Shown here piece after piece: positions 12,584 through 38,567 of a stretch of 64,000 bases of DNA. Both the position numbers and the translations under genes were made by a program. The stretch lies in the NCBI RefSeq assembly GCF_024266705.1, contig NZ_CP100756.1:434001-498000 (forward strand), given 5' to 3'. The notes below the pieces were generated by a model. It did no database searches. It was not told the origin of the DNA and worked only from the letters and a program-made list of their open reading frames with translations. The first letter of the stretch is position 1, and each line of letters starts with the position of its first letter. The stretch is from Natrinema gelatinilyticum. GTDB lineage: Archaea; Halobacteriota; Halobacteria; Halobacteriales; Natrialbaceae.

Positions 12584-12922
12584 AAACCTTAATTGTTTTT
12601 TATAATCATTTGGGAGGCGGGAAGAATATTTAACTCTTTACTGTATGCAATATATAAAGATAAGTCAGCTAATAGATTGCGAGCGCCGTCGAAGCGGAAC
12701 AGCCGTCAACTGAATCATCGTATATCGGTAGGGTTCTCCCTGCCCACAGTATTCATAGGTTTTCTGTAGAATTTAATTATTTGAATCGCGAGAGTTGAAT
12801 TCGCAGACGTCTCTCGATTCGGTTGAACTGACCCGACGGCCGGTTTGGGCCGTGATGGCCGGTCGGTTCAGACGGAGATACCCACTCGTTACGGAAGGCG
12901 AGAACTAAGCCCGACGCATCTG
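12584..12922. other. AT-rich intergenic region upstream of cstA
   Basis: About 340 bp without a convincing gene on either strand. GC drops sharply between about 12590 and 12790, as in haloarchaeal promoters. The minus strand carries GATTATAAAAAAC (12596-12606) about 45-50 bases upstream of the cstA ATG, and a second AT-rich stretch AATATTTAACTCTTTA near 12627-12642. The right part returns to high GC and leads into the 81-bp hairpin element. Confidence 0.5.
12596..12606 (-). promoter_or_regulatory. Candidate TATA box of cstA
   Basis: The minus-strand sequence TTATAAAAA would place transcription start near 12573, giving a leader of about 20 nt before the cstA ATG at 12553. The spacing fits archaeal promoters. 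Confidence 0.4.
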
Positions 12923-13003
12923 ATACGGACTACCGAAAGTCATTACCGGTGCAACCGCAGGATGATCGCGGTTGCACCGGTAAATCGTTACAGCAGACCG
13001 TAT
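12923..13003. repeat. 81-bp palindromic hairpin element, copy 1
   Basis: Two 36-base arms (12923-12958 and 12968-13003) surround a 9-base loop AGGATGATC. The innermost 16 bases are perfectly paired (TTACCGGTGCAACCGC); by eye 28 of 36 arm positions pair. A related element lies at 37715-37795. It sits between the promoter region of cstA and the stop of the aminotransferase gene. The core recalls hairpins I have seen in other haloarchaeal genomes, from memory only. Confidence 0.85.
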
Positions 13004-13015
13004 GACGCACCTGTC

Positions 13016-14083
13016 CTACTCGAGAACGGTTCCGAGTGCGTCCATCGTCCGTTCGACGCGGTCGATGCGTGCGTTGTGGCCCATGTGGCCGACCCGGAGG
13101 ACGTCCTCGGCGAGGTCTCCGAGCCCGGTCGCGAGAACGATATCGTGGTGGTCTGCGAGCCGCTGCTGAACGGACACTGCCCGTCCGGGTATCTCGAGTG
13201 CGGTCACGGTCGGAGACGATTGCGCGCCGTCCGGGTACAGCGACAGGCCGAGGTCGTCGGCTCGCTCCCGACAGCGCGTTGCGGCTTCGTCGTGGCGCTC
13301 GAAGACACGCTCAAGGCCTTCCTCGAGCAGCAGGTCGGTCGCCGCGTCGAACCCGTAGAGGTTCGACGACAGATGCGTGTATGGGAACCACTCGTCGTCG
13401 GCGGCGTCACGCCACGGTTCGAGGTCCGTATACAGGCTGTCCGTCTCGAAGGACTCGATTTTCGCCCAGGCGCGGTCGCTGATCGAACAGACGGTCAATC
13501 CCGGCGGCGCGCTGAAACACTTCTGGGAGGCACCGAGGGTGACGTCGATTCGATCAGTAGGCACCGGTGTCCCGCCGAGCGAGGAGACTGCATCGACGAC
13601 GGTGATGACGTCGTGGTCGTCGCACAGGCCGAGAACCGGTTCGAGGTCGTTCAGCACGCCGGTTGGCGTTTCGCAGTGGACCATCGTCGCGACGTCGAAC
13701 GCGCCGTCTTCGAGGTGGGACTCGATCGCAGCGAGGTCGAGCGGCTCCCGCCACGGCGACTCACAGACGACCGCGTCGCCGCCGTACATCTCAACGAAAT
13801 CGCCGAACCCCCCACCGTAGAGGCCGTTCGAAATACACAACACCCGGTCACTGGACTCGACCAGCGACGCGACTGCGGCCTCGAGACCGAGGATTCCCTC
13901 GCCGCCGAGGACGACGATGTCGTCGTCCCCGTGGATCGCCTCGAGCTTCTCGGTCAAGGCACGGTAGAACGCGAAAAACTCGGGTTCGACGTCGGGGTTC
14001 GGCGTGGGTTCGGCCATTCGCTCGCGGACGTCGGCCGGCACCTCGGTCGGCCCAGGCGTCATGCGAAGTCTATCGTCGGACAT
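13016..14083 (-). CDS. Class V PLP-dependent aminotransferase (alanine-glyoxylate/serine-pyruvate type)
   Basis: The protein has 355 aa. RMTPGPTEVPADVRERM is the classic N-terminus of the family. The PLP-contacting Asp is in TVVDAVSSLGGTPV and the Schiff-base Lys in TLGASQKCFSAPPGL. Family members move amino groups between alanine, serine or phosphoserine-type donors and glyoxylate or pyruvate; the exact substrate is not deducible here. I chose the ATG at 14083; the upstream extension in frame is not family-like. The stop lies 13 bp from the hairpin element, and the gene diverges from the methyltransferase at 14215. Confidence 0.9.
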   Translation of the reverse strand: MSDDRLRMTPGPTEVPADVRERMAEPTPNPDVEPEFFAFYRALTEKLEAIHGDDDIVVLGGEGILGLEAAVASLVESSDRVLCISNGLYGGGFGDFVEMYGGDAVVCESPWREPLDLAAIESHLEDGAFDVATMVHCETPTGVLNDLEPVLGLCDDHDVITVVDAVSSLGGTPVPTDRIDVTLGASQKCFSAPPGLTVCSISDRAWAKIESFETDSLYTDLEPWRDAADDEWFPYTHLSSNLYGFDAATDLLLEEGLERVFERHDEAATRCRERADDLGLSLYPDGAQSSPTVTALEIPGRAVSVQQRLADHHDIVLATGLGDLAEDVLRVGHMGHNARIDRVERTMDALGTVLE

Positions 14084-14214
14084 ACTGAGGATGCTGGTCC
14101 GTCCGGCCATAAAACCCTTCGAGACTGGGTGCGGACCTGTCGCCGCTCCCCCAACTGGCGGATCGACCCTGTCGGGACGGAAACGGTATACGTCCGTCGG
14201 ACATCGTGTTGACC

Positions 14215-14892
14215 ATGGCGAGTTGCGACCCACGCCGCGGCGCGGGCAACGAGGTGACGGGCCACCCGGCGTTCGCCGCGCTGTACGACCGGCTCATGCC
14301 AGATCGATTCCTATTTGGTCCCCATCGCGAGTACCTCGCGGCCGACCTCTCGGGACGAGTCCTCGATCTAGGTGCGGGAAACGGTGCGATGTTTCCCTAC
14401 GTCGCCACCTCCGCCGACGCCGACATCGAGTATCACGCGGTCGAACCGGACCCACACATGCGCCGCCGGGCCGCCCGAAAGGCAAAACAAACCGACCTGT
14501 CGGTCGATCTCCGCGGTGCTCGCGGCGAATCGCTCCCCTACGCCGACGATAGCTTCGACGTCGTCATCTCGGGGCTGGTGTTCTGTACGATCGACGATCC
14601 AGACGCTGCACTCGACGAAGTCACCCGCGTCCTGCAGCCCGGCGGCGAACTTCGATTTCTCGAGCACGTCCGTAACGACGGCTGGCGCGCGTGGGCCCAG
14701 GACCGCATCAATCCGATCTGGACCCGTGCGGCCGCCGGCTGCCAGTTGAACCGCGAGACAGTTGAACGGTTCGTCGGGCACGACGAGTTCGACGTTCTCG
14801 AGATCGAGCGTCTCGGCGTCGGTCTGTTCCCGGCGACGCCGATCGTCCGCGGACGACTTCAGCGCAGATCGGACGGGTTCTCGACGAGCTAG
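14215..14892 (+). CDS. Class I SAM-dependent methyltransferase (UbiE-like)
   Basis: The protein has 225 aa. Motif I is RVLDLGAGNGAMFPYV, the acidic motif II is EYHAVEPDPHMRRRA, and motif post II is SFDVVISGLVFCTIDDPD. The EVTRVLQPGGELRFLEHV strand ends the fold, as in the methyltransferase-11/UbiE group. Substrate unknown; quinone, lipid or small-molecule methylation are typical for the group. I chose the ATG at 14215 rather than one three codons upstream because it lies closest to the first conserved segment. Confidence 0.85.
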   Translation: MASCDPRRGAGNEVTGHPAFAALYDRLMPDRFLFGPHREYLAADLSGRVLDLGAGNGAMFPYVATSADADIEYHAVEPDPHMRRRAARKAKQTDLSVDLRGARGESLPYADDSFDVVISGLVFCTIDDPDAALDEVTRVLQPGGELRFLEHVRNDGWRAWAQDRINPIWTRAAAGCQLNRETVERFVGHDEFDVLEIERLGVGLFPATPIVRGRLQRRSDGFSTS

Positions 14893-37606: not shown

Positions 37607-37961
37607 ACGCCACGCAACGAAACGACGACGCGGCGAGCGCCGCTGGTCCATGCCAGGGACGTCGACGATGGCAGGTCGGTCAAATCGGCGACGGAGCGGT
37701 CGACCTCGAGGCTTGTACGGTCTGCTGTACCGATGTACCGGTGCACCCGCAGGACGGTCGCGGTTGCACCGGCAATGACTCACAGTAGTCCGAATGTACC
37801 GCCGCCGTTCGCGACGCGAAAACGGAGTGGTTCGCAGAGAGGGGCTCACCGCTGCCGGTGCTCTGGACCGTGACGGGGATGGCCGAGACGAATCAACTCG
37901 AGCGACTGTCGAGCAGAAGTCGGCAAAAGGGTGTTTGCCGACACCGGCGTAGTCCCGCACG
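37607..37961. other. Intergenic region holding hairpin element copy 2
   Basis: 355 bp without a supported gene. The middle is the 81-bp palindrome. The flanks are GC-rich and non-coding-looking. The last ~60 bp lead to the UDG-family gene and hold no obvious TATA box. Confidence 0.45.
37715..37795. repeat. 81-bp palindromic hairpin element, copy 2
   Basis: Arms 37715-37750 and 37760-37795 flank a 9-base loop AGGACGGTC. By eye 23 of 36 arm positions pair, with the best stem next to the loop (CCGGTGCA…CCGC). The left arm is most similar (about 32/36) to the reverse complement of the right arm of copy 1, and the right arm (about 31/36) to the left arm of copy 1, so the arms are exchanged while the loop keeps its direction. 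Confidence 0.85.
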
Positions 37962-38567
37962 ATGACCGATCAGATCGAGTGGGAGTTCGAGACGGAGTTC
38001 GCGAACGCGCTCGAAGCAGTACCCGACGATCAATACGATCGAGAACGGTTCGTCCCCGGCGTCGGGCCGTTGTCCGCGGACGTGATGCTCATCGGCGAAG
38101 CCCCAGGCAAACAAGAGGTCGAGCAGGGTGAGCCGTTCGTCGGCCAGGCCGGGGCGCAGCTCGATCGCGTTCTCGAGGAGAGTGGGCACGACCGTTTGGA
38201 GCTGTACATTACGAATCTCGTCAAGGTGCGACCGCCCGAGAACCGCGATCCGTACGTCGCCGAGATCGAGGCCTGGTGGCCGGTCCTCGAAGCCGAGATA
38301 GAACGCGTCGACCCGAACGTGCTCGTTCCGCTGGGGAGTTTCGCCACCGACGAACTCCTCGACACCGACGAAACGATCACGGATCTGCACGGCCGGGTGT
38401 TCGAGAGCGGGTTCCAGCACACCACGGACTCCTCGAACGGGCGCGGTTCGCGAGAGGGCGAGGGGCGGACCGTCGTTCCGGCGTTCCACCCGGCAGCGGC
38501 ACTCTACGACCGCAGTAAGGTCGACGTAATACAGTCGGACCTGGCGACCGCCCTCGAACGGGCCTGA
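37962..38567 (+). CDS. Uracil-DNA glycosylase superfamily protein without Fe-S cysteines
   Basis: The protein has 201 aa. [20 protein letters not shown] followed by [20 protein letters not shown] is the UDG-fold motif 1 region, and [17 protein letters not shown] the C-terminal motif with its His. [14 protein letters not shown] sits between. Type 4 and 5 UDGs normally carry four Cys for a 4Fe-4S cluster; this protein contains no Cys at all. It may be a cluster-free branch of the family. It excises uracil or other damaged bases if active. The start [13 protein letters not shown] leaves room for only a short N-terminus before motif 1. Confidence 0.85.

What the first reader, a model, noticed from the sequence alone, without database searches (positions are those of the whole stretch)
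12923..13003. 81-bp hairpin element whose two arms are exchanged between copies
Seen: two copies (also 37715-37795), each 36-base arm, 9-base loop, 36-base arm. The arms are not identical within a copy, so they can be told apart. The left arm of copy 1 matches the right arm of copy 2 (about 31/36), and the right arm of copy 1 matches the left arm of copy 2 (about 32/36). The loop, however, reads AGGAyGrTC in both as written. So the loop is inverted relative to the arms, as expected if the stem flips by recombination or if the element transposes as a hairpin. The core CCGGTGCAACCGC is nearly invariant. Inference: a small dispersed mobile or regulatory palindrome.
Basis: partly seen in the sequence, partly recalled or inferred. 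Interest (0 to 1): 0.72.

Follow-up and report, generated by a model that had tools for sequence, protein, structure and literature searches.

The report
Stop-codon hairpin transposon with flipping loop
In the genome of a salt-loving archaeon, an 81-letter hairpin occurs in about a hundred copies, most of them flanked by a 3-letter target duplication and many lying exactly at the TGA that ends a long reading frame, and the hairpin's tip is reversed between related species at a few shared sites, likely through strand switching during DNA replication.

Summary
In detail: the two copies have exchanged arms but the same loop. They belong to a family of about 105 copies in this haloarchaeal genome; 66 of 125 Natrialbaceae genomes have 20 or more arm matches. 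It is a non-autonomous transposon: inverted ends TACGGnCTnCTGT, a 3-bp target duplication (TCA, TGA or TAA; 75 of 85 copies), and empty single-copy targets at 14 loci in sister genomes. The loop is inverted relative to the arms in about half of the copies (36 against 49 of 85), without association to arm variants. At orthologous sites the loop is reversed at 3 of 12 loci; one pair, 96% identical, is a clean in-place inversion. Best mechanism: spacer inversion by template switching between hairpin arms, as published for yeast. Transposition as a hairpin is not supported. No partner transposase was found, in an incomplete search. Class: new variant of a known kind (MITE).

The parts
12924..13002 (+). 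Element copy 1 (79 bp inserted unit, arm A on the left, loop in orientation n = AGGACGGTC-like)
   Evidence: (L089); absent at this site in sister genome G053
12921..12923 (+). Left copy of the target duplication, TGA
   Evidence: family pattern
13003..13005 (+). Right copy of the target duplication, TGA
   Evidence: family pattern
12946..12958 (+). Inner stem, left half (CCGGTGCAACCGC)
12959..12967 (+). Loop AGGATGATC, the part that inverts in the family
12968..12980 (+). Inner stem, right half (GCGGTTGCACCGG)
37716..37794 (-). Element copy 2 (79 bp, arm A on the right; read from arm A its loop is in the inverted orientation f = GACCGTCCT)
   Evidence: L090; no clear target duplication
37751..37759 (-). 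Loop of copy 2, AGGACGGTC as written on the + strand
13016..14233 (-). Neighbouring gene, class-V aminotransferase; its stop codon TAG lies 10 bp to the right of copy 1's right triplet
37962..38567 (+). Neighbouring gene of copy 2, uracil-DNA glycosylase superfamily

Best explanation
The hairpin is one of about a hundred copies of a short inserted element with inverted ends and, in most copies, a 3-bp target duplication, predicted to be moved by a transposase made elsewhere, and its loop is reversed between related species at a few shared sites, likely by template switching between the hairpin arms during DNA replication. Shown: ends, duplication, empty sites, the excess of insertions at TGAs that end long reading frames, mixed loop orientation, and one clean loop inversion between orthologous sites. 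Inferred: a DDE-type transposase in trans; a target preference CGAC-TSA-GTCG that, together with selection against damaged genes, concentrates copies in stop codons, where the duplication leaves the stop intact; and a switch of the nascent strand between the two arms on sister templates, which reverses the loop and often the inner-stem mismatch with it.
For: Target duplication: identical 3-mers in 75 of 85 copies (TCA 49, TGA 25, TAA 1); middle base equal in 76 against 41 expected. Also 32 of 36 pattern matches in G058 and 16 of 23 in named Natrialbaceae loci, spurious matches included. Empty sites: 28 G058 copies against G056 and G057 (56 comparisons) gave 19 exact 3-bp flank overlaps at 14 loci; in 11 of the 19 both flanks align to their very ends, in 8 they were extended without gaps; the single triplet is TGA or TCA in 15 of 19. 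Two more exact ones in G053, one single-TCA site in G000. Stop codons: 31 of 80 insertion TGAs end an open frame of 200 or more codons, against 169 of 5359 TGAs in the same loci and 26 of 384 within 100 bp; in 10 of the 15 empty alleles with TGA/TCA a frame of 100 or more codons already ends there; in 5 of 5 annotated plasmid genes opened, the stop codon is the triplet at the element's right edge. Flipping: 36 n and 49 f of 85; in 71 clean copies no outer-arm variant is associated with the loop, and 13 copies with identical outer arms split 6 n to 7 f. Orthologous filled loci: loop reversed in 2 of 5 for G000/G053 and in 1 of 7 for G058 with G056/G057. Pair L229/L393 is 96% identical, shares the same odd right triplet, keeps the stem mismatch, and differs by the inverted loop (8 of 9 bases). 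Precedent: template switching at inverted repeats gives arm homogenisation and spacer inversion, arms over 9 bp (PMC8604942, abstract and passages).
Against: No partner transposase was found, although the search was incomplete. Nine of the 56 ortholog comparisons looked empty but without an exact 3-bp overlap. Two of the three reversed orthologous pairs (L102/L236, L288/L380) differ at several other positions, so gene conversion from another copy or independent insertion at the same triplet is possible there; for L288/L380 the third genome is empty. In G058 only 3 of 35 classified elements are n, with 3 ambiguous, so flipping is not equally frequent everywhere. Outer-arm variants are themselves only weakly linked, so their lack of association with the loop is weak evidence alone. 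Compensated double changes do not exceed shuffles in the inner stem (2 against a mean of 4.0), so arm homogenisation is not demonstrated there.
Confidence: 0.72

Rival explanations
1. Two source lineages of the element, one per loop orientation, were amplified separately, and recombination or gene conversion between copies mixed their arms; no flipping in place is needed.
For: G058 is mostly f, so orientation can be inherited by a burst; outer variants in G000 are only weakly linked, as recombination between copies would make them.
Against: The L229/L393 pair is 96% identical over flanks and arms, shares the right triplet CGA and keeps the stem mismatch in place while the loop is reversed. n and f both occur in a second subfamily with other arms and loop (TCTACTG...GCAAACC, loop AGGGCGGTC).
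Confidence: 0.15
2. A site-specific invertase or the transposase itself inverts the inner hairpin, as in phase-variable switches.
For: Near-equal orientations in G000 would fit an enzyme-driven switch; whole-element reversal at one shared site (L270/L369) could be the same activity on the outer ends.
Against: No recombinase gene was looked for. The stem (13 bp, loop 9 bp) is very short for a recombinase pair (recalled), and the reversed tract varies: in the 71 clean copies the stem mismatch goes with the loop, in L393 it does not, which fits template switching better than fixed crossover sites.
Confidence: 0.07
3. A REP-like or RNA-level element kept by selection at gene ends (terminator or mRNA 3' hairpin) rather than a transposon.
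For: Palindromic, dispersed, and often directly after the end of a long frame; strong predicted fold of the minus strand of copy 1 (z -6.65).
Against: Target duplications and exact empty sites show insertion. No covariation beyond shuffles in the inner stem; copy 2 folds no better than 26 and 12 of 200 shuffles on its two strands; no Rfam match at gathering scores. Copy number differs strongly between relatives: about 105 in G000, 9 found in G053.
Confidence: 0.06

Closest known systems
[quoted passage not shown] those of Haloquadratum walsbyi (PMC3119063, passages read)
   Same: Short, non-coding, inverted ends, multi-copy, target duplication, insertions that differ between relatives
   Different: There the ends are related to a known transposon; here no matching transposon was found. 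Here the target is a TSA triplet that often ends a long frame, and the loop is reversed between orthologous copies
Small mobile repeats SMR-A/SMR-B of Haloquadratum walsbyi (PMC3119063, passages read)
   Same: About 80-110 bp, inverted ends unrelated to a known transposon, mobilising enzyme unknown
   Different: SMRs cause no target duplication; this element does
Template-switch spacer inversion at short inverted repeats in yeast (PMC8604942, abstract and passages); hairpin-associated small inversions in plastid DNA (search listing only)
   Same: The loop between inverted arms of about 10 bp or more reverses
   Different: Described there at single loci in yeast or plastids; here in a mobile family of about 100 copies, in an archaeon
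REP palindromes (search listing; passages of PMC12306157)
   Same: Dispersed palindromes outside genes
   Different: REPs are not known to me to leave a target duplication (recalled); here there is one

Membership tests
MITE | Short, non-coding, terminal inverted repeats | tested here: met
   79 bp unit, TACGGnCTnCTGT ends
MITE | Target site duplication | tested here: met
   75 of 85 identical triplets; 19 exact 3-bp overlaps at empty sites
MITE | High copy number and dispersal | tested here: met
   213 arm matches, reversed control 5
MITE | Ends shared with an autonomous transposon that supplies the transposase | tested here: inconclusive
   Not found in 30 PF01609 loci of 4 genomes, at copy boundaries in 25 G000 loci, or around 53 of 72 core-less end matches in 125 genomes; search incomplete
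SMR (Haloquadratum small mobile repeat) | No target duplication | tested here: not met
   Duplication present
REP/REPIN | No target duplication (recalled) | tested here: not met
   Duplication present
REP/REPIN | Mobilised by a RAYT (Y1) transposase (recalled) | not tested
   No RAYT gene was sought
Template-switch spacer inversion | Loop reversed between otherwise matching alleles, arms of about 10 bp or more | tested here: met
   L229/L393; inner stem of 13 bp in copy 1
Template-switch spacer inversion | Dependence on replication and on arm complementarity | not testable with these tools
   Needs an experiment

The most novel reading that the evidence does not exclude
A transposon family that docks on stop codons: its target CGAC-TSA-GTCG matches the Asp-TGA gene ends of acidic haloarchaeal proteomes, the 3-bp duplication copies the stop codon so the protein is untouched, and its hairpin tip flips so fast in place that orientation is at equilibrium, making each copy a natural recorder of replication template switching in archaea.
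Probability: 0.4. Interest if true: 0.7.

Novelty: new variant of a known kind. Interest (0 to 1): 0.55.

Why it matters
If true, it shows how a mobile element can reach a hundred or more copies in a gene-dense genome with little damage, by landing on stop codons and duplicating them. It also gives about a hundred parallel hairpins per genome, with empty and filled alleles in sister species, in which loop inversion can be counted in archaea. Annotators would gain a defined repeat for about half of the Natrialbaceae genomes searched (66 of 125).

Tried and rejected
Rfam: no match in the window at gathering scores. Autonomous partner: 30 PF01609 loci of four genomes, no end pair like the element's around a transposase; copy boundaries in 25 G000 transposase loci, none with TACGG ends (duplications judged by eye only). 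A pattern for ends without the hairpin core gave 72 places in 125 genomes; I looked around 53 of them (loci). Long end pairs with equal triplets turned up in L293, L305, L321, L399, L405, L407 and L410 (and the listing). L399 and L405 hold a glycosyltransferase, an isochorismatase-domain protein and an AI-2E-type transporter; the frames scanned in L407 and L410 match no Pfam family, and those of L410 and one of L407 no NCBIfam family over its cut-off; some of these pairs begin with a whole copy of the element rather than a lone end. L293, L305 and L321 were judged by eye from their frames: no transposase seen. Conserved RNA structure: no excess of compensated changes in the inner stem (one search failed with a script error and was redone). 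In the outer ends the 18 double changes equal the largest of 500 shuffles (mean 12.0) and 16 come from one pair, 16/66. Viruses: one hit in viral contigs is a chance arm without the element; no match in phage records. Inner hairpin as an independent unit: rejected, since 20 of 21 perfect hairpins in the collection hits have both arms and the last has one. Fixed orientation relative to the gene: bias 31:14 in G000 (P 0.016), but 16:14 in the other sets pooled by hand, so not general. Papers: 10 searches listed no paper that I recognised as describing this element or a stop-codon-targeted archaeal MITE; the library holds open-licence papers only.

Rows dropped: 3 of 88 fetched G000 stretches gave a copy already counted. 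14 of 85 copies were left out of the arm-loop tables for low score or a length other than 81. About 20 of the roughly 105 G000 copies were not extracted. Of the 56 comparisons, 19 were exact empty sites, 9 looked empty without an exact overlap, 15 held extra sequence and 13 had a flank missing or on different loci. Of the 15, eight comparisons at seven loci are the filled pairs used; L263/L360, L277/L370, both L271, both L287 and L289/L364 were rearranged or misplaced and not used.

Full report
What was checked. The two window copies are real and related as described. The window lies at 434001-498000 of the main contig of a 5.44-Mb haloarchaeal genome, G000. The arm motif TACAGYAGWCCGTATNA occurs 213 times with up to two mismatches, the reversed motif 5 times, so there are about 105 copies. 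I extracted 85 distinct ones from 88 fetched stretches.

Anatomy. Read from arm A, the canonical copy is ATACGGACTACTGTACGTCATTG, inner stem CCGGTGCA[A/C]CCGC, loop AGGACGGTC, inner stem GCGGTTGCACCGG, TACATCGGTACAGCAGACCGTAT. The outer 15 bases form imperfect inverted ends, bases 17-23 differ between the arms and tell them apart, and the inner 13 bases form a stem. In RNA folding copy 1 on the minus strand is far more stable than shuffles (z -6.65; plus strand z -2.84); copy 2 is not (z -1.32 and -1.64). Perfect inner hairpins found in the genome collection lie in Natrialbaceae records; 20 of 21 carry both arms, so the hairpin does not look like a separate unit.

Insertion. The three bases on the two sides of the core are identical in 75 of 85 copies: TCA 49, TGA 25, TAA 1. 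The middle base agrees in 76 against 41 expected from composition. Flanks beyond the triplet show a weak symmetric target, CGAC-TSA-GTCG, stronger on the arm-B side. In G058 32 of 36 pattern matches and in named loci 16 of 23 have identical triplets. Sister genomes show sites before insertion. For window copy 1, G053 lacks the element; the single triplet there reads CGA. For two other G000 copies the flanks overlap by exactly 3 bases in G053, and one G053 copy has a single TCA at its site in G000. Of 56 comparisons (28 G058 copies against G056 and G057), 19 at 14 loci overlap by exactly 3 bases; in 11 of these both flanks align to their ends, in the other 8 the alignment was extended without gaps; 15 of the 19 single triplets read TGA or TCA, the others TCT twice, GCA and TAA. 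Nine more comparisons looked empty without an exact overlap. G056 and G057 have contig lengths equal to those of Natrinema hispanicum DSM 18328 and CDM_6 records, which I take as their identity by inference.

Stop codons. In 80 of 85 copies an outward-facing TGA stands at the insertion triplet. An open frame of at least 200 codons ends exactly there in 31 of 80, against 169 of 5359 TGAs in the same loci and 26 of 384 TGAs within 100 bp of the site. With 100 codons it is 45 of 80, against 62 of 384 local TGAs and 33 of 147 CGNCTGA-type sites. These are open frames, not annotated genes. Annotation was seen in plasmids: thirteen records hold the element, six have an annotated gene under the match, I opened five, and in all five the stop codon TGA is the triplet at the element's right edge. 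Of the 15 empty alleles with TGA or TCA, 10 have a frame of 100 or more codons that already ends there. So insertion would copy the stop codon and spare the protein. Window copy 1 is not in a stop codon: it lies 10 bp beyond the TAG of an aminotransferase gene. Whether the excess comes from target recognition or from selection against insertions inside genes is not decided.

Loop orientation. With arm A on the left, the loop reads AGGACGGTC-like (n) in 36 and GACCGTCCT-like (f) in 49 of 85 copies. The first table of 30 copies showed few inversions, I think because the query favoured its own loop. In 71 clean copies no outer-arm position with at least four minor variants is associated with the loop (all P at or above 0.13); the inner-stem mismatch at 32/50 is, so it turns with the loop. 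Thirteen copies with identical outer arms split 6 n to 7 f. A nearest-neighbour test on the arms finds no clustering by loop (0.516 against 0.501, P 0.35), but a control label does not cluster either (P 0.16), so this test has little power. In other genomes f prevails or the split is even: G058 3 n and 29 f of 35, with 3 ambiguous; G053 4 n and 5 f; named loci 5 n and 17 f of 23, 1 ambiguous.

Orthologous sites. Five filled sites shared by G000 and G053 were found: loop equal in three (L095/L230, L143/L231, L094/L233) and reversed in two (L102/L236, L393/L229). The last is the key case: 96% identity over 382 aligned columns, the same right triplet CGA against TGA on the left, the stem mismatch kept, and the loop AGGACGGTC against GACCGACCT, which matches the inverted loop at 8 of 9 bases and the uninverted one at none. 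G058 shares seven usable sites with G056 or G057: loop orientation relative to the arms is equal in six (L261, L265, L268, L277, L285, L270) and reversed in one (L288/L380); at L270/L369 the whole element is reversed relative to its flanks. In total the loop is reversed at 3 of 12 loci. L102/L236 and L288/L380 could also be conversion or repeated insertion.

Mechanism. Template switching between the arms of inverted repeats homogenises arms and inverts the spacer; [quoted passage not shown] This element has a 13-bp inner stem. The step is inferred here, not shown. Compensated changes in G000 do not exceed shuffles in the inner stem (2 against a mean of 4.0); in the outer ends 18 equal the shuffle maximum (mean 12.0), 16 of them at pair 16/66.

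Spread. By hand count, 66 of 125 Natrialbaceae genomes have 20 or more arm matches, while the reversed control never exceeds 9 in a genome. In a sample of 108 genomes of the order (13 of them Natrialbaceae), three of the other 95 have 10 or more matches at the stricter setting (G157, G190, G210). G000 and G053 differ by 7.7% in the gene next to copy 1 yet hold about 105 and 9 found copies, so copy number seems to change fast.

Partner. No transposon with these ends was found; the search was incomplete. By the classes of the Haloquadratum study (PMC3119063, passages) the element sits between MITEs (target duplication, ends of a known transposon) and SMRs (no duplication, no known transposon). 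I file it as a variant of the MITE kind. Ten paper searches listed no paper that I recognised as describing it.

Noticed in passing
L270 (G058) and L369 (G056), element at the same site: The whole element is reversed relative to its flanks at the same TGA, while G057 is empty there; could be inversion through the outer ends or independent insertion.
   Followed up: partly
G000 whole genome: 84 matches to DDE_Tnp_1 (PF01609), far more than in the three other genomes of the same search, G058 (16), G038 (18) and G098 (12).
   Followed up: no
L294 (TACGG ends 112 bp apart) and L305 (146 bp apart): Longer units with similar ends and matching TCA triplets: possible related subfamilies.
   Followed up: no
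L098, G000 C1 about 781813: One arm is normal while the other is replaced by a second arm-like sequence, perhaps a nested insertion.
   Followed up: no
G000 copies, positions 16 and 66 of the element: The two paired positions are dimorphic (C-G 31, A-T 16, A-G 12, C-T 10, T-G 2 of 71) and weakly linked (P 0.024), possibly traces of arm-to-arm copying.
   Followed up: partly
G190, G204, G210 (family f14, genus g60) and G157 and others (f7, genus g35): The arm motif is repeated in a few genomes outside Natrialbaceae, suggesting transfer or an older origin.
   Followed up: no
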